A stretch of DNA of 37,284 nucleotides from Candidatus Zambryskiibacteriota bacterium (GTDB taxonomy: Bacteria > Patescibacteriota > Minisyncoccia > Phycocordibacterales > DATDWN01): positions 1 through 37,284 of the forward strand of contig SIBV01000003.1 in the NCBI GenBank assembly GCA_009694965.1, written 5' to 3'. Positions 1-27,665 of this stretch are shown piece after piece. Every line of letters starts with the position of its first letter. Position 1 is the first letter of the stretch. Under the pieces are notes generated by a model. The model was not told where the DNA came from, ran no database searches, and saw only the letters and a program-made list of their open reading frames with translations. A program made the translations under genes and the position numbers.

Positions 1-164
1 ATTCGAAAGACGGAGCGACTCCTGTTTTAGTAAAAACAGGACGCGAGTCAGGGTCGCGGAAATTTCTGAGCGTCGGCGAAGAAATTATCTGTGACCGAGA
101 TACACTTCCTCCGCCAAAACAAAAACGCTTGTTACAAGCGTTTTTGTTTTGCTATAATAGCCTC

Positions 165-563
165 ATGATAACTAAAAACCCATCACTACTTTTAGCCAGA
201 CTCGCACTATTAGTAGTCTACTTTTGGTTTGGACTTCTCAAAGTTCTCGGTATGAGTCCTGGAAGCGAAATGGTTGAAAAAATACTGGGGATGACTATGC
301 CATTCTTCCTGTTCTCTACGTTTATTATTTTGTTTGGACTCTTTGAGATGCTAATCGGAATACTATTTCTAATCCCAAAATGGGAAAAATTTGCGGTAGG
401 ACTATTTGCTCTTCATATGTTTACCACGACACTCCCCCTCTTCTTTATGGGTGAGGTGTGGACCTCAATGTTTGTGCCAACTTTGGAGGGACAGTATATT
501 GTAAAAAACTTGGCGCTAATAGCCTGTGCTGCGTGTATTTATACTTCAACTAGAAACGACTAG
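165..563 (+). CDS. DoxX-like small integral membrane protein
   Basis: ORF 129..563; the internal ATG at 165 (MITKNPSLLLARLALLVVYFWFGLLKVLG) is preferred because TGCTATAAT lies directly upstream. Four hydrophobic segments, DoxX-like pattern. Confidence 0.6.
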   Translation: MITKNPSLLLARLALLVVYFWFGLLKVLGMSPGSEMVEKILGMTMPFFLFSTFIILFGLFEMLIGILFLIPKWEKFAVGLFALHMFTTTLPLFFMGEVWTSMFVPTLEGQYIVKNLALIACAACIYTSTRND

Positions 564-584
564 TTGTTGTGATAGAATTAACCT

Positions 585-1040
585 ATGGAAAAACTCTCTT
601 GGGAAACTATCGAATACCTACATACAGAAAAAACTTCTGATTGGTATTGGATTGTGGGAATAATTACTATTTCTATTGCACTAATTTCAATAATACTAAA
701 TAACGTTATATTCGCACTGCTTATTATAGTCGCATCCTTTACCCTCTCACTTTTTGCCTCTCGTCGACCAGAAAAAATAAAAATCGAAATAAGTAACTCC
801 GGCGTTCAGGTAGGTAAAACAAAATATTCATATCATGAGTTAGAATCTTTTTGGGTTGAAACGCGTGAAGTTCACCACAGAGTACTGCTGAAATCCAAGG
901 CTATCTTGAAACCATATGTTGTGATTTTTATTGAAGACATCGATCCTGAGGAACTTCGAACCTTGCTCGCTCAGTATTTGCAGGAAGAAGAACATAGCGA
1001 ACCTCTACTCGAAAAACTTTTGTTGTATTTTGGTTTCTAG
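585..1040 (+). CDS. hypothetical membrane protein, two N-terminal TM segments plus a soluble domain
   Basis: Intact ORF, hydrophobic stretch WYWIVGIITISIALISIILNNVIFALLIIVASFTLSLFA. Confidence 0.6.
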   Translation: MEKLSWETIEYLHTEKTSDWYWIVGIITISIALISIILNNVIFALLIIVASFTLSLFASRRPEKIKIEISNSGVQVGKTKYSYHELESFWVETREVHHRVLLKSKAILKPYVVIFIEDIDPEELRTLLAQYLQEEEHSEPLLEKLLLYFGF

Positions 1041-1045
1041 AATTG

Positions 1046-1117
1046 TGCTCCCGTGAGGAATCGAACCTCAATCACAAACTCCGCAAGTTCGCATTCTATC
1101 CGTTGAACTACGGGAGC
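1046..1117 (-). tRNA. tRNA-Arg, anticodon GCG
   Basis: Reverse complement GCTCCCG-TA-GTTC-AACGGATA-GAAT-G-CGAAC-TTGCGGA-GTTTG-TGAT-TGAGG-TTCGATT-CCTCA-CGGGAGC-A folds into a full cloverleaf. Anticodon GCG at 1082-1084. No encoded CCA. Confidence 0.92.
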
Positions 1118-1138
1118 GATATTTATTTTATTAAGATA

Positions 1139-1756
1139 TCATATAATGTCATGATTACCTATTTGCTTTTGAATAGCGTACCCTATGGCTAAAATCTCCT
1201 TTCTAATATCACTACTTAAATAGCACAAACTACATATACCCATAAAATTCTTCCTGAATCTTTTTTTTCGACTTCTTTTTTTTATTGTAGTTGCATTAAA
1301 TTGTGCCTCTGGAATATGTAATAAATTAGACCAAAATTGTTTTGTTTTTTTAACTGGATGATAATAATGTAACTGTAAATAAATACGAAATCTAGCCTCA
1401 TTTATTTCATAGCAATTTCTTAATAAAGATGCAAAAAGATCAATTAACTTTGGATCAGTGTTAGTAAATTTCAATCCACTTATTCTTTCGTGTTTTGAAC
1501 CTTCGGCCCAATATAGCATTGCTAAAAGAGATTTCTGAAAATCTTTAGACTTAAGTGGATAAGATGATACTTCCTCTTCAATACTAATTCTAATTTTTTC
1601 TAATCCATCAAGCCTTATTTTAGTTTTCATTCTTCCTGCTAAAGGTCGAATTTTTGCTAAATGTTCAGCCATCGCTTTTTTATCAAAAGGCATGCCCAAT
1701 TCCTTACCAAACCAATCAGAAAGAGTTCTCTTGGGTGCTTGGTTAATCTGGATGAG
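1139..1756 (-). pseudogene. homing-endonuclease-like / HTH-associated hypothetical protein, apparently 5'-truncated
   Basis: ORF 1139..1699 has the pattern LAMLYWAEGSK..LKFTNTDPKLI..F..LLR seen in a LAGLIDADG-like hypothetical family. The open frame extends upstream (..KRTLSDWFGKELGMPFDKK..) to a stop at 1757-1759 with no ATG, and TTG at 1699 is the only usual start. Confidence 0.4.
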
Positions 1757-1893
1757 TTATTAAAAATAAAAATGAATCACTCACGCCCTCACGGGACGAG
1801 GTATCCGGGAAAGATTTTGCTTTCGCAAAATCCTTGATTCGCTCGGACTCACTCTATCCCACGGGCTGACGCCACAGGGAATTGTTGTGGATT

Positions 1894-1929
1894 AAATCAA
1901 AAACCACTCCAGAGAGTGGTTTTTGATTT
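1894..1929 (-). terminator. intrinsic terminator downstream of rpsT
   Basis: AAATCAAAAACCACTC-CAGA-GAGTGGTTTTTGATTT, 16-bp perfect stem. Confidence 0.8.
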
Positions 1930-2189
1930 TAGGCTTTCTTGATCATCGCACTGATTCTAGATTTCTTTCTAGATGCTGTGTTTTGCTTTAGTAAACCAGT
2001 TTTTACTGACTTATCTAGAATTTTTTGTACTTCTGGCATGAAGTCACGAGCTTCCTTCATCTTCTTTTCAGAGATAAGTTTCTTCACTTTCTTCAGTGCT
2101 TTGTTTATAAGCTCCTTCTTATTTAGGTTGAAATTTCGCTTTCTTTGTGAACCTCTTAGGGCTTTTTTGGCTGATGTTGTAATAGGCAT
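1929..2189 (-). CDS. rpsT: 30S ribosomal protein S20
   Basis: MPITTSAKKALRGSQRKRNFNLNKKE...TASRKKSRISAMIKK, characteristic bS20. Confidence 0.95.
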   Translation of the reverse strand: MPITTSAKKALRGSQRKRNFNLNKKELINKALKKVKKLISEKKMKEARDFMPEVQKILDKSVKTGLLKQNTASRKKSRISAMIKKA

Positions 2190-2256
2190 GTGTCGTATCC
2201 TATATTAAACCAAGAAATAAATCAAATACCGAAAAATATAGGTGGAATTTTGCCTG

Positions 2257-2292
2257 CCCCGTAGTGAAGCTTCTTGCTTCTACTACTGGGGT
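2257..2292. repeat. GTAGTGA-type hairpin upstream of ruvA
   Basis: CCCCGTAGTGAAGC-TTCTT-GCTTCTACTACTGGGGT; homologous to the hairpin at 14012-14073 upstream of ruvB. Confidence 0.75.
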
Positions 2293-2312
2293 AAATAGAG
2301 TATTATAGAACC

Positions 2313-2900
2313 ATGATTGGCTACCTAAAGGGCACGTTACTGCATCAAGACTTGAAGTCTGTGATTCTTGATGTAGGAGGTGTGGGCTACAAAATCTATA
2401 CAAATACAGCCTTTTTGTCTTTGCCGAAGCTTGGCCTCGGCGATAAATCATATAAGGCGCAAGCTTCGACAGCATTCTGGACGTATTTAGCTGTTAGAGA
2501 AACTGCACTCGACCTGTATGGTTTCAACACAAAAGACGAGCTACATTTCTTTGAACTACTTATTTCTGTTTCTGGTATTGGGCCAAAATCTGCAATGGGA
2601 ATACTCTCGATTGCATCCGTTCAAAACCTCAGGCATGCCATTGTATCAGGAGACACAAGTCACCTTACAAAAGTTTCTGGTATAGGAAAAAAGAACGCTG
2701 AAAAAATTGTGATTGAACTCAAAGATAAACTAGAAGGTCTGAGTACTGACATGACGGAATCCATGCATGGTGATGTTGACGCTATTGAAGCACTCAAAGC
2801 TCTAGGTTACGGTGAACGTGAAGCGAGAGAAGCTTTGAAAAAAGCTGAGGGAGAGACCACAGAAAAGAAAGTTCGGTCTGCATTAAAAAAATTATCATGA
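2313..2900 (+). CDS. ruvA: Holliday junction branch migration protein RuvA
   Basis: MIGYLKGTLL..VILDVGGVGYKIY..., HhH region SGIGPKSAMGIL / SGIGKKNAEKIVIELKDKL, C-terminal domain AIEALKALGYGEREAREALKKA. Confidence 0.96.
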   Translation: MIGYLKGTLLHQDLKSVILDVGGVGYKIYTNTAFLSLPKLGLGDKSYKAQASTAFWTYLAVRETALDLYGFNTKDELHFFELLISVSGIGPKSAMGILSIASVQNLRHAIVSGDTSHLTKVSGIGKKNAEKIVIELKDKLEGLSTDMTESMHGDVDAIEALKALGYGEREAREALKKAEGETTEKKVRSALKKLS

Positions 2901-3012
2901 TACTAATATACGAATGTAACGAATGATACGAATGGTTACGAATAAGAAAAATCAAGAAGCATTCATTCGTAGACATTTGTAGATTAGTATTATTCGTATA
3001 TTCGTATGTTTA
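2896..3012. repeat. TACGAAT-type palindromic repeat, copy 1
   Basis: ATATACGAATGTAACGAATGATACGAATGGTTACGAAT...CATTCGTAGACATTTGTAGATTAGTATTATTCGTATATTCGTATG; ends about 10 nt before the mutM ATG. Confidence 0.85.
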
Positions 3013-3021
3013 ACTAAAACT

Positions 3022-3918
3022 ATGCCTGAATTACCTGAAGTTGAAAATCTAAGGCTAGGTCTGGAGCGCTATATTCTCGGACAAAAAATATTAAAAGTTA
3101 AAATTAATAAACCTAAACTTGTCTCAGGTAAGGGCAACGCTCGCGTTGCATCCTCCAAAAAAGTCAGCGAATTTATAAATGGTCTCACTAAAGAGAAATT
3201 TATAGCAGTAGAAAGGAGGGCGAAAAATTTAATTTTTAAACTAAGTAACGATAAGATGATTTTAGCTCACCTTAAGATGAGCGGGCAATTTGTATATAAA
3301 GGCAAAAACAAAAAAAGTGTAATAGGTGGTCATCCTATAGAAATTTCTGAAAAAGTTTTACCTAATAAGCACACTCATATTATCTTTGAATTAAATGATG
3401 GGGTTCTGTACTACAACGACACAAGAATGTTTGGCTATGCCCTTTATTACCCAAATGTCGAACAATTTGAAAAAGGAAATCATTTTGAAAACCTAGGCAA
3501 AGAACCGCTTGATAAAAGTTTTACGGCTAAGTATTTTTTTGAATCCCTTAAAAGCAAAAGGAGTAAAATTAAAAGCGTTCTAATGGGCCAAGAAGTGGTT
3601 GTTGGAGTTGGTAATATTTATACTGACGAAAGCCTCTTTGAGGCTGGCATCCTACCTACCCGTTCTGCCCAAAGTCTAAATTTGAATGAAGTCACCAAAC
3701 TTCATAAAGCTATTATTAGAATAATATCCAAAGCAATTAAAGTAGGTGGCTCCTCTGTGGCTACCTACCGTCTCTTGGATGAAAGCCAAGGCAATTATGC
3801 TCGGGAACACAAAGTTTACGGCAAGTCCGGCAAAAACTGCCCCCGCTGCGCTTCCTCTCTTCAAAAAATCCTTATCCAGACACGAACGACAATTTTTTGC
3901 CCAAATTGCCAAAGATAA
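3022..3918 (+). CDS. mutM: formamidopyrimidine-DNA glycosylase
   Basis: N-terminal MPELPEVENL, C-terminal zinc finger CPRCASSLQKILIQTRTTIFCPNCQR. Confidence 0.96.
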   Translation: MPELPEVENLRLGLERYILGQKILKVKINKPKLVSGKGNARVASSKKVSEFINGLTKEKFIAVERRAKNLIFKLSNDKMILAHLKMSGQFVYKGKNKKSVIGGHPIEISEKVLPNKHTHIIFELNDGVLYYNDTRMFGYALYYPNVEQFEKGNHFENLGKEPLDKSFTAKYFFESLKSKRSKIKSVLMGQEVVVGVGNIYTDESLFEAGILPTRSAQSLNLNEVTKLHKAIIRIISKAIKVGGSSVATYRLLDESQGNYAREHKVYGKSGKNCPRCASSLQKILIQTRTTIFCPNCQR

Positions 3919-3972
3919 GTTTTGTAACAGTAACACTACTGCAATATGCTCTAAAAGTGATAGAATATAGAC

Positions 3973-4845
3973 ATGCAAGGCATAGTCATTCTACTAGGAA
4001 TTATAGCTATTGGACTCTTTGGTGGGAGCAAGGGAGCTGGAAATAATGGCCTGTTCTCAACTGGTGCTCCAACCCCTGAACAAAAAAAAGCGAGTATAGA
4101 GTTCCAAATACGGGACGCCCAAGTAAAAGTCGACGAGCTTCAAAAACAAATCAAGACCGCAGAAGAGAATAAAAACGCCTCGATTTACAAAGGTGATGTC
4201 ACTTTGAACTATGGCAGTAGATCGACTGACCCTGGACAAGAATACCTAACTATAAAAGTCAGTAGCGGTGGCAACAAAAACATTCTAGTTACTGGATGGC
4301 AAGTAAAAAGCCTAGCTAGCGGAAACTCTGTGACGATTCCGAAAGGCACATATTTATTCTTCACGGAGACTATTAACTCGGAAGAAGATATCCGTCTTAC
4401 AGGGGGTGACACCTTATATCTTGTAACTGGCTCATCTCCGAACGGAGCTAGTTTCAAATCCAACAAATGTTCAGGATACCTAACTCAATTCCAAACTTTT
4501 ATACCTTATATAAATAACATCTGTCCTTCACCTAAAAACGAAAATCTGTCCTCAATACCCCGACGCGTTATAAACGATGCGTGTTTTGACTATATTGATT
4601 ACTTCCCTACTTGCAGAATACAGACTGAACCGCTTCCTCAAAATTGGAGTTCCGAGTGTTACAGTTTTATCTATGACAAAATTAACTATCCATCTTGTGT
4701 AAATGTGCACAAAAGCGATGCGGACTTCTACCAGCCAGAATGGAGAGTTTACCTCAAGCGCTCAGAAAGACTCTGGAAAAACTCCAAAGAAACTATAGTC
4801 TTGTATGACAGCACAGGCAAAGTAGTAGATACAATAAAAAATTAG
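3973..4845 (+). CDS. secreted/anchored hypothetical protein, lamin-tail-domain-like with several Cys
   Basis: N-terminal hydrophobic segment, coiled-coil, then beta-rich region (..LTIKVSSGGNKNILVTGWQVKS..GTYLFF..TLYLVTGSSPNGASFKSNKCSGYL..) ending IVLYDSTGKVVDTIKN. Confidence 0.5.
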   Translation: MQGIVILLGIIAIGLFGGSKGAGNNGLFSTGAPTPEQKKASIEFQIRDAQVKVDELQKQIKTAEENKNASIYKGDVTLNYGSRSTDPGQEYLTIKVSSGGNKNILVTGWQVKSLASGNSVTIPKGTYLFFTETINSEEDIRLTGGDTLYLVTGSSPNGASFKSNKCSGYLTQFQTFIPYINNICPSPKNENLSSIPRRVINDACFDYIDYFPTCRIQTEPLPQNWSSECYSFIYDKINYPSCVNVHKSDADFYQPEWRVYLKRSERLWKNSKETIVLYDSTGKVVDTIKN

Positions 4846-5339: not shown

Positions 5340-5391
5340 ATTTCAAATCATCATATCTTACGATATATCGTAAGATATGATGATTTGAAAT
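5340..5391. promoter_or_regulatory. 52-bp perfect uninterrupted palindrome between divergent genes
   Basis: ATTTCAAATCATCATATCTTACGATA|TATCGTAAGATATGATGATTTGAAAT. A candidate sigma70-like promoter TTGAAA (5385-5390)-17 nt-TACAAT (5408-5413) overlaps the right arm. Confidence 0.85.
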
Positions 5392-14011: not shown

Positions 14012-14073
14012 GTAGTAGAGCATAGCTCACTACACCTTAGACCCCGTAGTGAGCTATGCTCTACTACTAGGGT
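14012..14073. repeat. 22-bp perfect inverted repeat of a GTAGTGA-type hairpin upstream of ruvB
   Basis: GTAGTAGAGCATAGCTCACTAC (14012-14033) / GTAGTGAGCTATGCTCTACTAC (14046-14067); flanks CCCC..TAGGGT match the copy upstream of ruvA. Confidence 0.85.
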
Positions 14074-23282: not shown

Positions 23283-23407
23283 TGTTTTTAAATTATTTAG
23301 TTTTATATCCTTATATTATATAGTTATTATCTTACTGATTCAATGTTGACCCCGTTAGAGTTTTACAATTTGAAATAATTTATTTTTATGGTATAATAGA
23401 ATTGTTA

Positions 23408-23896
23408 TGTTGGATAAGTGCTCTTTAGCTATTTATAGCTAAAGGGAGGAAAGTCCGAACATCAAGTTTAGATTTATCTAAACAAGAGTAGCGGGTAACG
23501 CCCGTCGGGAGTAATCCTAGAGGTGCGAGCAGTGACGTCCGAGGCGAAAGCCAGAGAATTCCGCTGCGTTAAAGCAGATGGAATAATTTTATGGAAACAT
23601 AAAAGTGAAACGGCAAAATCCTTACTTTGATGCAAGGCCGTACCCGACTGCACCTCACTGGGTTCAGTGCAGAATTTTCAATTTTCAATTTCTAATTTTC
23701 AAACAATTCTCAATGTATCAAAGGGGAATTAATTCATTGAAAACTGAAAATTAGAAATTAGAAATTCTGTCCGAGCAAAGCGAGGTGCAGTTGGGGGTGC
23801 CGCTTGATCACCGTGGTAACACGAGCGACAGATAAATACTTATCGTCGAGCACCAGTTCTGGTGCTCGATACAGAATTCGGCTTATAGACACAACA
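23408..23896 (+). ncRNA. rnpB: RNase P RNA carrying an inserted palindromic element
   Basis: CR-I GGGAGGAAAGTCCGAACA, ACGGCAAAATCC..GATGCAAGGCC, GCTTGA, 3' ACAGAATTCGGCTTATAGAC; TATAAT at 23392-23397. Confidence 0.93.
23672..23766. repeat. TTTTCAATT-type palindromic element inside rnpB
   Basis: GAATTTTCAATTTTCAATTTCTAATTTTCA...TGAAAACTGAAAATTAGAAATTAGAAATTC. Confidence 0.9.
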
Positions 23897-23901
23897 AAAA
23901 T

Positions 23902-24024: not shown

Positions 24025-24657
24025 TTAATCAAAAACTAGGTCCTTTAACTCAGCCTTGTCTTTCAAAATCTCATAACTTGATTTGGTGAAATCTTTAAAC
24101 TCAGCAATGTCTTTAAATTGACTGAGTATGATTTCATTATCACATATATTATTAGAATTAATCCCAATGAATTCCGGGTAACTACTCCATTTGTAATTTT
24201 CTATATTTTTCACAATTCCTCCTATTTTAGGATTTTGGTGAAGATAACAAGTTAACCAATTTAAATACTCATTATCCCCTATCGTTATCTGCTTGAATTG
24301 ATCTTGAAATATATGACCGACCTTATCATACTTTCTATTAAAATATTTTGAATGTATTGAAAACAAAGGATTTCTCGGTTGATGGGAATCCTTTGTTTTC
24401 AATACATTCAAAATCTCGGCTGGACGAGATGTTGTTGTTTCATAATGATTTTGAGTTTCCTGTGCTTTTTCATCTGGAGTAGTTCTGTATGACAAAACTG
24501 ATTCCTCTAAAACAAACCAGGAACGATCAATCCTTCTTGATGTAATTTTATCTTGTCTGCAAAGCTGTCCAATGTAGTCTCTAGAGTAGCCGGTAATTCT
24601 ACTGGCCTCTTTTATTGAAATATATTTCTTCCCTTCAAAGTAAGCGTCAGAATTCAT
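24025..24657 (-). CDS. chimera: N-terminal excisionase/MerR-like HTH fused to the C-terminal part of a RAYT/Y1 transposase lacking the HUH motif
   Basis: ATG at 24657 (MNSDAYFEGKKYISIKEASRITGYSRDYIGQLCRQDKITSRRIDRSWFVLEE) followed by YFNRKYDKVGHIFQDQFKQITIGDNEYLNWLTCYLHQNPKIGGIVKNIENYKWSSYPEF; no HxH motif. Confidence 0.7.
   Translation of the reverse strand: MNSDAYFEGKKYISIKEASRITGYSRDYIGQLCRQDKITSRRIDRSWFVLEESVLSYRTTPDEKAQETQNHYETTTSRPAEILNVLKTKDSHQPRNPLFSIHSKYFNRKYDKVGHIFQDQFKQITIGDNEYLNWLTCYLHQNPKIGGIVKNIENYKWSSYPEFIGINSNNICDNEIILSQFKDIAEFKDFTKSSYEILKDKAELKDLVFD
24345..24414. repeat. 28-bp perfect inverted repeat with 14-nt spacer inside the chimeric gene
   Basis: ATTTTGAATGTATTGAAAACAAAGGATT (24345-24372) / AATCCTTTGTTTTCAATACATTCAAAAT (24387-24414). 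Confidence 0.93.
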
Positions 24658-24679
24658 TAGTAAAATTATAGCGTTCAAA

Positions 24680-24710
24680 TGTGGATAAATTGTGAATAAT
24701 ATGGGGATAA
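24680..24710 (-). promoter_or_regulatory. three DnaA-box-like 9-mers at 11-bp spacing
   Basis: TGTGGATAA (24680), TGTGAATAA (24691), TGGGGATAA (24702), directly upstream of the TATAAT of the chimeric gene. Confidence 0.5.
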
Positions 24711-24960
24711 CAAAAGATATTTCAGAAGAGTTCACCCTTCTGAAATATCAATTTAGAATTTTTAAATTGGATACAAATTATATATAGGATTTGATACAGA
24801 GCCTATAAATTTTCTCTTTACTAATAGTATGTCTTGTCTATAACTTTTTCTAAATTTTAAAGTTTAAATTCTGAAAGTTATCAACAGGTAACATTGTTAA
24901 TCTAATATAAACTTTGTATTATTAAGTCATAGCTTTATCAATCTTTATTAATGTACTACT

Positions 24961-25203
24961 ATTGCAAATCAATATATAACAATAAAACAAGCTTCCAAGA
25001 TTCTTGGTGTAGCTCCACTAACTCTTCGTAATTGGGACAATAGCGGAAAGCTAAAGGCTCATAGGCATCCTATGAACAACTACAGAGTTTACAAAATTGA
25101 AGATCTAGAAAAGGTAATTATGGAAATTGAGACCAACACTGGACTAAGAAAAAGTAGTAAAAAAGATGTTAGGAAGCTCATCGTGAAGCATCTAGAAGAG
25201 TAA
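24961..25203 (+). CDS. MerR-like HTH protein without a standard start codon
   Basis: Frame NQYITIKQASKILGVAPLTLRNWDNSGKLKAHRHPMNNYRVYKIEDLEKVIMEIETNTGLRKSSKKDVRKLIVKHLEE*; upstream in-frame stop with no ATG/GTG/TTG, only ATT or other rare codons. Confidence 0.55.
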   Translation: MANQYITIKQASKILGVAPLTLRNWDNSGKLKAHRHPMNNYRVYKIEDLEKVIMEIETNTGLRKSSKKDVRKLIVKHLEE

Positions 25204-25209
25204 CAACAT

Positions 25210-25241
25210 AAAACAGCTCTGACAAATGTCAAGGGCTGTTT
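25210..25241 (+). terminator. hairpin terminator after the MerR-like gene
   Basis: AAACAGCTCTGACA-AA-TGTCAAGGGCTGTTT then TATTTTATT. Confidence 0.65.
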
Positions 25242-25281
25242 ATTTTATTAACCAACCCTCATCTCTCTACCCTTCTTACAT

Positions 25282-25306
25282 TATGGCAAGGTTAAACCTT
25301 GCCATA
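25282..25306. repeat. REP-like hairpin, left flank of RAYT
   Basis: TATGGCAAGG-TTAAA-CCTTGCCATA. Confidence 0.85.
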
Positions 25307-25333
25307 TGAAGAAAGAAAAACTATAATATACAG

Positions 25334-26011
25334 ATGACACGTTCAACCACAATCTCAATTGATGAATTTTATCACGTTTATAATAGGGGTACTGAGAAAA
25401 GAAAAATATTTAACACACGGTATGATTACGAACGTTTTATAGCTCTTCTCTATCTGTGCAACTCTACTGAACCAATACGCATAAGAAGTAAGTACTTAAA
25501 TGAAATGCTTGATACTAAGCGCGGTAAAAAACTAGTAGACATTGGTGCGTACTGTCTCATGCCAAATCACTTTCATCTTTTGTTATACGAATGTGTTGAG
25601 GATGGCACCAGTCTGTTTATGCAGAAACTAACAACAGCCTACACGATGTATTTCAATAAGAAAAACGATAGGGTTGGAAGTTTGTTTCAAGGTACATTCA
25701 AAGCTGAGCATCTAGACGATGATGAATATTTAAAATATATTTTTGCATACATTCACTTGAATCCTGTTAAACTTATTGAACCTAAATGGAGGGAGGATGG
25801 GATCAAAAACCGCACTGGAGCAAAAAACTTTTTGAAAAATTATTCATATTCAAGTTACTCAGAATTTACCGGAGTCGACAGAAAAGAAAAAGTCATCCTC
25901 TCCCCTACTGCCTTTCCAAAGTATTTTGAAAAGGTGGATGACTTTCAAAAAATGATTAACTTCTGGATCGAGTTCAAGAATGAATACCTTCTGCCAGAGA
26001 AAGAAATCTAA
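25334..26011 (+). mobile_element. Y1/HUH transposase of the RAYT (REP-associated tyrosine transposase, IS200-like) family
   Basis: DEFYHVYNRGTEKRKIF..., HUH motif MPNHFHLLL, AYIHLNPVK Tyr region, C-terminal YSSYSEFTG; flanked by REP-like hairpins. Confidence 0.93.
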
Positions 26012-26019
26012 AAACTAGA

Positions 26020-26048
26020 AGTATGGCGAGGTTTAACCTCGCCATACT
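26020..26048. repeat. REP-like hairpin, right flank of RAYT
   Basis: AGTATGGCGAGG-TTTAA-CCTCGCCATACT. Confidence 0.85.
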
Positions 26049-26114
26049 ATGAGGGAGAAGGTGTTTTGGTAGACCAATTATTTGGACCAATTATTTTTTT
26101 ATTTTACAGACCGA

Positions 26115-27665
26115 CTATTTTAATAACTCAAGAGTAATTTTTCGGATCAGTTCTGGATTGCCAGCGCCTTTCATCGCCTTCATACCATGGCCTACAAAAA
26201 AATGAAGGAGTGATTCTTTGCCGGCTTTGTAGCCCGCAACACTCTCGGGGTTAGTGGTGATTATTTCTTGCATAACTGCTCTAAGCTCTTCTGAATCATT
26301 TTTCTGAATCAATCCTTTCTCTTTTGCAATCACTTCTGGACTTCCGCCGACTACATACATTATTTTTAAAACATCCTTTGCTCCACGTGATGACAAGTCG
26401 CCACTTTTAATCATAATTATTAAACTTACAAAATTTTCAACTTCAATAAGTCCCAAAGAAAACTCATTTCCAGCAACTTTCGAAAGTCCGATAATATCTG
26501 ATGTAATGTAATTTGATGCAGACTGAACAATTTCTGAGCCTTGAGCTATTAATTGTTTGGAAACTGTTTCAAAGAAATTACACGCTTCCCTATTGTTTAT
26601 GTATGTCTCGATATCCGAACTCTTTAGACCAAAATCTTTTGAGAACCTTTCTCTCTTTTGTTGAGGTAGTTCTGGTATTGATTTTTTTATTGTTTCATAA
26701 TCAAATTCTGGAATTTCTGAAATAAATATCTTTGGTAAATCAGGTTCAGGGAAATATCTGTAGTCATGAGCGGACTCTTTTGCTCTTTGACTGAAAGTCA
26801 CACTTTTGTTTTCATCCCACCCGCGGGTTTCCTGGATCACCTTTTCTCCCTTTTCCAAAATTGATTTTTGTCTTTCGAATTCAAAATCAATAGCCTTTCC
26901 AGCAGCTCGGAAGGAGTTTATATTTTTTACCTCCACTTTCGTCCCTAATTGGTCATTGGACATTGGAACTTGGGATTTATTGACGCTTATATTCACCTCA
27001 ACTCTCATTTCCCCTTTTTCCATGTTGGCATCAGATACTCCTAAATATTGAAGAAGTAGTTGAAACTCTCTGGCAAAATTCATAGCATCAACACTTGAGT
27101 GAATTACAGGTTCTGTAACTAATTCCATCAAAGGCACCCCTGCTCTGTTATAGTCAACTAAAGAATTTTCAGTTCTCAATTTTGCAATTTTCATTGAATT
27201 TTCAATGTTTGAATTTTCATTGGAAATTGACTCATTGAGATTTGATTGGAAATTGGAAATTGGAAATTGTGAATTAGCCCCACTGTCATGTATCGATCTT
27301 GCAGTATCTTCTTCAAGATGGATGCGAGTTAAATCCACTCCGTCAATAGAGCCCCCAGAAACTAGAGGGTATTTATACTGACTTATCTGATACCCTTTTG
27401 GGATATCAGGATAGAAATAGTTCTTTCTATCGAACTCAGTAAAGTTGGCGAGCTTGCTCCCTACAGCCACCCCCACAGACAAAACCTTTTTAATGGCCTC
27501 CTTGTTTATAACAGGGAGCGTCCCAGGGTGACCCATACATATTGGACAGATATTTGCGTTTGGAGACTTTTCTTCTGGATCGTTTTTACATCCACAAAAC
27601 ATTTTACTCTTTGTTTTGAGTTCAGCGTGAATCTCGAGACCAACTGTTATCTTATAATCTGACAT
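26115..27665 (-). CDS. gatB: aspartyl/glutamyl-tRNA amidotransferase subunit B with a repeat-derived insertion
   Basis: YKITVGLEIHAELKTKSKMFCGCKND...NICPICMGHPGTLPVIN...; ~38 extra aa ANSQFPISNFQSNLNESISNENSNIENSMKIAKLRTEN between SIHDSG and SLVDYNRAGVPLMELVTEP. Confidence 0.96.
   Translation of the reverse strand: MSDYKITVGLEIHAELKTKSKMFCGCKNDPEEKSPNANICPICMGHPGTLPVINKEAIKKVLSVGVAVGSKLANFTEFDRKNYFYPDIPKGYQISQYKYPLVSGGSIDGVDLTRIHLEEDTARSIHDSGANSQFPISNFQSNLNESISNENSNIENSMKIAKLRTENSLVDYNRAGVPLMELVTEPVIHSSVDAMNFAREFQLLLQYLGVSDANMEKGEMRVEVNISVNKSQVPMSNDQLGTKVEVKNINSFRAAGKAIDFEFERQKSILEKGEKVIQETRGWDENKSVTFSQRAKESAHDYRYFPEPDLPKIFISEIPEFDYETIKKSIPELPQQKRERFSKDFGLKSSDIETYINNREACNFFETVSKQLIAQGSEIVQSASNYITSDIIGLSKVAGNEFSLGLIEVENFVSLIIMIKSGDLSSRGAKDVLKIMYVVGGSPEVIAKEKGLIQKNDSEELRAVMQEIITTNPESVAGYKAGKESLLHFFVGHGMKAMKGAGNPELIRKITLELLK
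27163..27275. repeat. TTTTCAATT-type palindromic element inside gatB
   Basis: GAATTTTCAGTTCTCAATTTTGCAATTTTCATTGAATTTTCAATG...ATTGGAAATTGGAAATTGGAAATTGTGAATT. Confidence 0.85.

What the first reader, a model, noticed from the sequence alone, without database searches (positions are those of the whole stretch)
24025..24657. HTH domain fused to a HUH-less RAYT C-terminal half
N-terminus KKYISIKEASRITGYSRDYIGQLCRQDKITSRRIDRSWFVLEE is an excisionase/MerR-like HTH. The C-terminus YFNRKYDKVGHIFQDQFKQI..EYLNWLTCYLHQNP..YKWSSYPEF aligns with the intact RAYT 1 kb away, but the region with the HFH motif is absent. The ORF is open across the fusion. Inference: a domesticated DNA-binding protein combining a new HTH with REP-recognition parts, or a recent deletion fusion.
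Basis: partly seen in the sequence, partly recalled or inferred. Interest (0 to 1): 0.78.

Follow-up and report, generated by a model that had tools for sequence, protein, structure and literature searches.

The report
Truncated surface gene fused to half transposase
In this tiny uncultured bacterium a large membrane/surface-fibre gene has lost everything behind its DNA-binding front end and now runs straight into the back half of a transposase gene; it looks like a one-off, recent deletion accident and not a new kind of DNA-binding protein.

Summary
On the minus strand, 24657→24025 is an intact 210-codon ORF: an excisionase/HTH_17-type domain (residues 1–62), a linker, then the C-terminal half of a RAYT (residues 98–210) without the HUH motif. 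Two points change its meaning. (1) It sits at a locus conserved across the order (GatB – small MerR – membrane-anchored HTH gene; in the genus followed by rnpB – Wzy/TPR – MurJ). The HTH end is the start of that gene, which in the relatives tested continues into a transmembrane segment and, in the genus, a fibre ectodomain up to thousands of residues long. Here both are gone. (2) The joint is a perfect 28-bp inverted repeat with a 14-nt loop; sequence shared with the orthologue stops at its edge and RAYT homology starts inside the other arm. That is the mark of a deletion with a short inverted templated insertion. The promoter is kept. The RAYT half keeps the catalytic Tyr but loses three of four core strands. 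No other fusion was found in roughly 760 related genomes or a scan of 85,488 species. Neither half shows decay, so the event is probably recent; selection cannot be measured. Best reading: a deletion relic, perhaps making a soluble HTH fragment.

The parts
24025..24657 (-). Fused ORF, 210 aa plus stop
   Evidence: open frame; no second fusion
24472..24657 (-). HTH domain, residues 1-62; 5' end of the conserved membrane HTH/fibre gene
   Evidence: 65% identity to C22 HTH/fibre gene; 64% to the syntenic G010 gene
24665..24670 (-). TATAAT, conserved -10 box just upstream of the ATG (leaderless transcription inferred)
   Evidence: same position in most HTH/fibre genes
24415..24471 (-). Linker of the parent HTH gene; shares TCTCGnnnGCCGAGA with the G010 orthologue at its end
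24387..24414 (-). HTH-side arm of the perfect inverted repeat (inverse copy of the RAYT-side arm)
24373..24386 (-). 14-nt loop, CCCATCAACCGAGA; its CCGAGA repeats the CCGAGA before the HTH-side arm
24345..24372 (-). RAYT-side arm of the inverted repeat; RAYT homology begins inside it (LFSIHSK)
24028..24366 (-). RAYT C-terminal half: end of helix 2, strand 4, catalytic-Tyr helix, C-terminal helices
24967..25203 (+). Small MerR/HTH_17 protein, divergent from the HTH gene; syntenic across the order (exact start codon not determined)
25334..26011 (+). Intact RAYT, 225 aa
   Evidence: Y1_Tnp E=6.5e-8
25282..25306 (.). REP-like hairpin upstream of the intact RAYT
26020..26048 (.). REP-like hairpin downstream of the intact RAYT
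23402..23901 (+). rnpB, RNase P RNA: the syntenic flank on the other side of the fusion
   Evidence: RF00010, 105 bits

Best explanation
The ORF is a one-off deletion fusion. Shown: it occupies the place of a conserved gene that normally encodes an N-terminal HTH, a transmembrane segment and, in this genus, a long fibre ectodomain. It keeps that gene's promoter motif, start and HTH. The rest (several kilobases, judged by G010) is gone, together with the N-terminal half of a RAYT gene, and the 3' half of that RAYT is joined in frame through a perfect 28/14/28 inverted repeat. Inferred: the break was healed by a fold-back template switch that copied the RAYT-side arm in inverse orientation; the added 41 nt happens to set the RAYT half in frame. 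Inferred: the gene is still transcribed, leaderless, and yields at most a soluble HTH fragment with a RAYT-derived tail that cannot cut DNA. It is most likely a relic on its way to loss. A paralogue of the HTH/fibre gene on contig C22 may make the loss tolerable.
For: Synteny with G010 and relatives across the order; S74 chaperone domain and surface Ig-like domain at the end of the G010 gene; transmembrane segment in G010 and in the relatives tested but not in the fusion; conserved TATAAT-ATG spacing; parent-gene homology ends at the outer edge of the inverted repeat and RAYT homology starts inside it; the repeat is far beyond chance and single-copy; no second fusion; no orphan RAYT N-terminal half in the genome; low-confidence model without the core sheet (pTM 0.47).
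Against: Both halves still look intact: leave-one-out profile score 206 bits for the RAYT half (53 relatives: 80-259) and 157 for the HTH (32 relatives: 88-184), with one odd G-to-D change in the HTH. A long-standing relic should show damage, so the event must be recent or the product must be kept. Template switching is inferred from the joint alone. The searches can miss distant fusions because long match lists are cut.
Confidence: 0.7

Rival explanations
1. The truncation has made a useful soluble regulator: the HTH, released from the membrane, still binds the divergent MerR/HTH promoter region, and the RAYT tail is passive or helps it to dimerise.
For: HTH residues, promoter motif and the divergent small MerR gene are intact; no decay in either half.
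Against: Found in a single genome; linker and start of the RAYT half predicted disordered (residues 65-121); a conserved glycine of the HTH is changed to Asp. Target DNA of the HTH is unknown.
Confidence: 0.18
2. A domesticated REP-binding protein: the RAYT half recognises REP-like hairpins and the HTH adds a second DNA contact.
For: The RAYT half keeps all strongly conserved residues of its part, including the Tyr helix and the b4 region; REP-like hairpins flank the RAYT 0.7 kb away.
Against: b1, a1, b2 and b3 are lost, and b1 carries REP contacts in TnpAREP (PMC8266576); the RAYT half is not from the neighbouring RAYT (36% identity), so those hairpins need not be its target; only four copies of that hairpin exist in the genome.
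Confidence: 0.04
3. Assembly or amplification artefact: the joint is a chimera and the real genome holds an intact fibre gene and an intact RAYT.
For: Fibre genes are repetitive and several end at contig edges; inverted repeats are typical chimera sites (own knowledge); this is a draft of 29 contigs, 87% complete.
Against: Both flanks stand in the ancestral order. No orphan RAYT N-terminal half exists in the assembly, and the only S74-region relative of the fibre gene is a diverged 306-aa ORF on C1 (33% identity).
Confidence: 0.08

Closest known systems
RAYT / TnpAREP (REP-associated tyrosine transposase; NF047646, PF01797; PDB 4er8)
   Same: Residues 98-210 are homologous to its C-terminal half, with the catalytic-Tyr helix; the closest intact relative folds like 4er8.
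   Different: No HUH motif and three of four core strands missing; fused behind an unrelated HTH; no flanking hairpin pair found for this half.
Patescibacterial membrane-anchored HTH gene next to gatB and a small MerR gene (HTH - linker - TM, often with GNVGIGTTTP-type fibre and Peptidase_S74)
   Same: Same locus, promoter motif, start and HTH.
   Different: Transmembrane segment, fibre and S74 end are missing here.
TnpA-Y1 subclass 2.1 proteins with a C-terminal HTH (Bac_DnaA_C / HTH_23 / HTH_28; PMC6006769)
   Same: A Y1 protein combined with an HTH domain.
   Different: There the HTH is C-terminal and the HUH/Y core is complete; here the HTH is N-terminal, of another family, and the core is halved. 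That survey set aside long fusions and partial copies.

Membership tests
RAYT / TnpAREP | HUH motif | tested here: not met
   The stretch invariant in 39 RAYTs is absent
RAYT / TnpAREP | Catalytic tyrosine helix | tested here: met
   Y138, invariant in alignment A3
RAYT / TnpAREP | Complete four-stranded Y1 core | tested here: not met
   Homology starts at residue 110 of the G014 RAYT; strands 1-3 lie before it
RAYT / TnpAREP | Binding and cleavage of REP hairpins | not testable with these tools
   needs an assay
Membrane-anchored HTH/fibre gene at gatB | Locus: GatB, divergent small MerR gene, then HTH gene | tested here: met
Membrane-anchored HTH/fibre gene at gatB | N-terminal HTH of this family | tested here: met
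   score inside the range of 32 relatives
Membrane-anchored HTH/fibre gene at gatB | Transmembrane segment behind the linker | tested here: not met
   best 19-residue hydropathy 0.42 against 1.5-2.6 in relatives
TnpA-Y1 subclass 2.1 | Complete core with C-terminal HTH/Bac_DnaA_C domain | tested here: not met
   HTH is N-terminal and the core is incomplete

The most novel reading that the evidence does not exclude
The fusion is a newly born soluble regulator: a membrane-tethered HTH was released by deletion, gained a transposase-derived tail, and now acts on the MerR/RAYT neighbourhood.
Probability: 0.06. Interest if true: 0.55.

Novelty: new member of a known kind. Interest (0 to 1): 0.2.

Why it matters
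As a protein it matters little: chimeric ORFs left by deletions are common. Its value is as a resolved example: the palindromic joint records how such a fusion can form. Tracing its origin showed that the N-terminus belongs to a membrane-anchored HTH gene kept next to gatB and a small MerR gene across a patescibacterial order, at a locus where RAYTs often settle. I found no description of that system in the limited literature searched; it deserves more attention than the fusion.

Tried and rejected
Fusion as a conserved architecture: rejected, no match covers both parts in 100 relatives, 399 genomes of the order or 389 of the phylum (overlapping sets), nor in the genome-contig scan; among fetched ORFs only the fusion itself hits both halves. 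The intact RAYT 1 kb away as parent of the fused half: rejected, 36% identity against 50% to a RAYT of another genus. Junction hairpin as a REP element or repeat family: rejected, no further copy in the genome or in 17 relatives. RAYTs beside rnpB in G002 and G005 as the same insertion: rejected, they face the other way relative to the fibre gene. dN/dS: not possible, no orthologue. First structural alignment A1 was unusable (fragments misaligned) and was replaced by A3. Literature searches for a described HTH-fibre family in Patescibacteria found nothing relevant. The paper I expected to describe 4er8 is not held.

Full report
What is there. The feature is a minus-strand ORF, 24657 to 24025, 210 codons from the conserved ATG. 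Residues 1-62 are an HTH_17/excisionase-type domain (below the Pfam cut-off; the assignment rests on up to 65% identity to many homologous HTH domains). Residues 98-210 are the C-terminal half of a RAYT (NF047646 profile positions 75-146). The best relative of that half is an intact 240-residue RAYT in G014, another genus of the same family, 50% identical. The HUH strand is missing; the tyrosine helix is present.

Where the front half comes from. In G010, a member of the same genus, the order is TyrRS, Obg, GatB, a small MerR gene, a 2725-residue HTH/fibre ORF, continued after a run of N by a 693-residue ORF with Peptidase_S74, then rnpB, Wzy/TPR and MurJ. The window has the same flanks, with an intact RAYT added between GatB and the MerR gene. 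Across the order, most examined HTH genes sit next to GatB and/or the small MerR gene. G010 and the short-ORF relatives sampled have a hydrophobic transmembrane segment behind the linker (apart from one frameshifted fragment); the fused ORF has none. The upstream TATAAT lies at about the same distance from the ATG as in most relatives, so expression is probably as in the parent gene, and leaderless (inference).

The joint. A perfect 28-bp inverted repeat with a 14-nt loop spans the joint (24345-24372 / 24387-24414); 12 simulated sequences never exceeded 13 bp. DNA similarity to the G010 linker ends with GCCGAGA at the outer edge of the HTH-side arm. RAYT homology begins inside the RAYT-side arm, at LFSIHSKYFN. 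The loop ends with CCGAGA, so the HTH-side arm plus loop behaves as a 41-nt insertion between copies of CCGAGA; leaving it out in silico puts the RAYT half out of frame. I infer a deletion healed by a fold-back template switch. The hairpin is not a repeat family.

What it could do. An AlphaFold2 model of the G014 RAYT (pLDDT 89) has strands 14-21, 76-84, 87-94 and 131-135 and best matches 4er8, a REP-associated tyrosine transposase bound to a REP hairpin. The fused piece starts at G014 residue 110 and so keeps one strand of four. The model of the fusion has pTM 0.47, a confident HTH, and low confidence over residues 65-121. REP recognition in TnpAREP uses b1, the surroundings of b4 and the C-terminus (PMC8266576), so only part of that surface survives. 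Without the HUH motif, DNA cleavage by the known mechanism is not expected; hairpin binding is unlikely but untested.

Selection and age. No other fusion was found in three overlapping genome sets (handles run to G760) or in the scan of 85,488 species, which sees close relatives only. Long match lists were cut, so a distant fusion could have been missed. Without an orthologue dN/dS cannot be computed. Leave-one-out profile scores put both halves within the range of intact relatives, so the fusion is either recent or maintained. An HTH/fibre paralogue, open to the end of contig C22, lies beside a broken copy of the neighbouring RAYT; this may have made the loss tolerable (inference). The assembly holds no orphan RAYT N-terminal half, and its only S74-region relative of the fibre gene is a diverged 306-residue ORF on C1; together with the ancestral order of both flanks this argues against a misassembly, without excluding it.

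Verdict. A real, one-off deletion fusion, most likely a relic. Interest of the fusion itself is low. The conserved GatB - MerR - membrane HTH/fibre locus is the more interesting by-product.

Noticed in passing
window 24025-26115; L079, L098, L110, L111, L115-L126, L136-L149: A membrane-anchored HTH gene (HTH - linker - TM, in many genomes with a long fibre ectodomain) is kept next to gatB and a divergent small MerR gene across a patescibacterial order.
   Followed up: partly
L098, L108-L114, L072, L074, window 25334-26011: RAYT genes often sit at this locus, between gatB and the MerR/HTH pair or beside rnpB: an apparent RAYT hot spot. No statistical test made.
   Followed up: partly
window 23402-23901; L072-L081: rnpB lies on the same strand as the neighbouring Wzy/TPR gene in six genomes of the genus (G002, G003, G004, G005, G008, G011) and on the opposite strand in five (G000, G001, G006, G009, G010): repeated inversion?.
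   Followed up: no
window 23680-23766: An AT-rich inverted repeat (22-nt arms, 91%) lies inside the rnpB match, as if inserted in a loop.
   Followed up: no
window 25282-25306 and 26020-26048; C25:38, C28:26219: REP-like hairpins GGCRAGGTTWAACCTYGCC flank the intact RAYT; only two further copies in the genome.
   Followed up: partly
window 5340-5391 and 14012-14067: Two further long perfect inverted repeats (26-bp arms without loop; 22-bp arms) in the window.
   Followed up: no
L082 (C22) 139-3654: An isoleucyl-type class I tRNA synthetase ORF carries a histidine-phosphatase domain (PF00300, residues 520-687) between its synthetase parts.
   Followed up: no
L082 (C22) 3728-4455: A broken relative of the window's intact RAYT (about 78% DNA identity, a TAG and a frame change) lies upstream of, and divergent to, the HTH/fibre paralogue.
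   Followed up: partly
L147 (G004:C17) 1-785: The HTH/fibre gene of G004 on C17 appears frameshifted between two HTH domains (two overlapping ORFs), a sign of decay in another paralogue.
   Followed up: no
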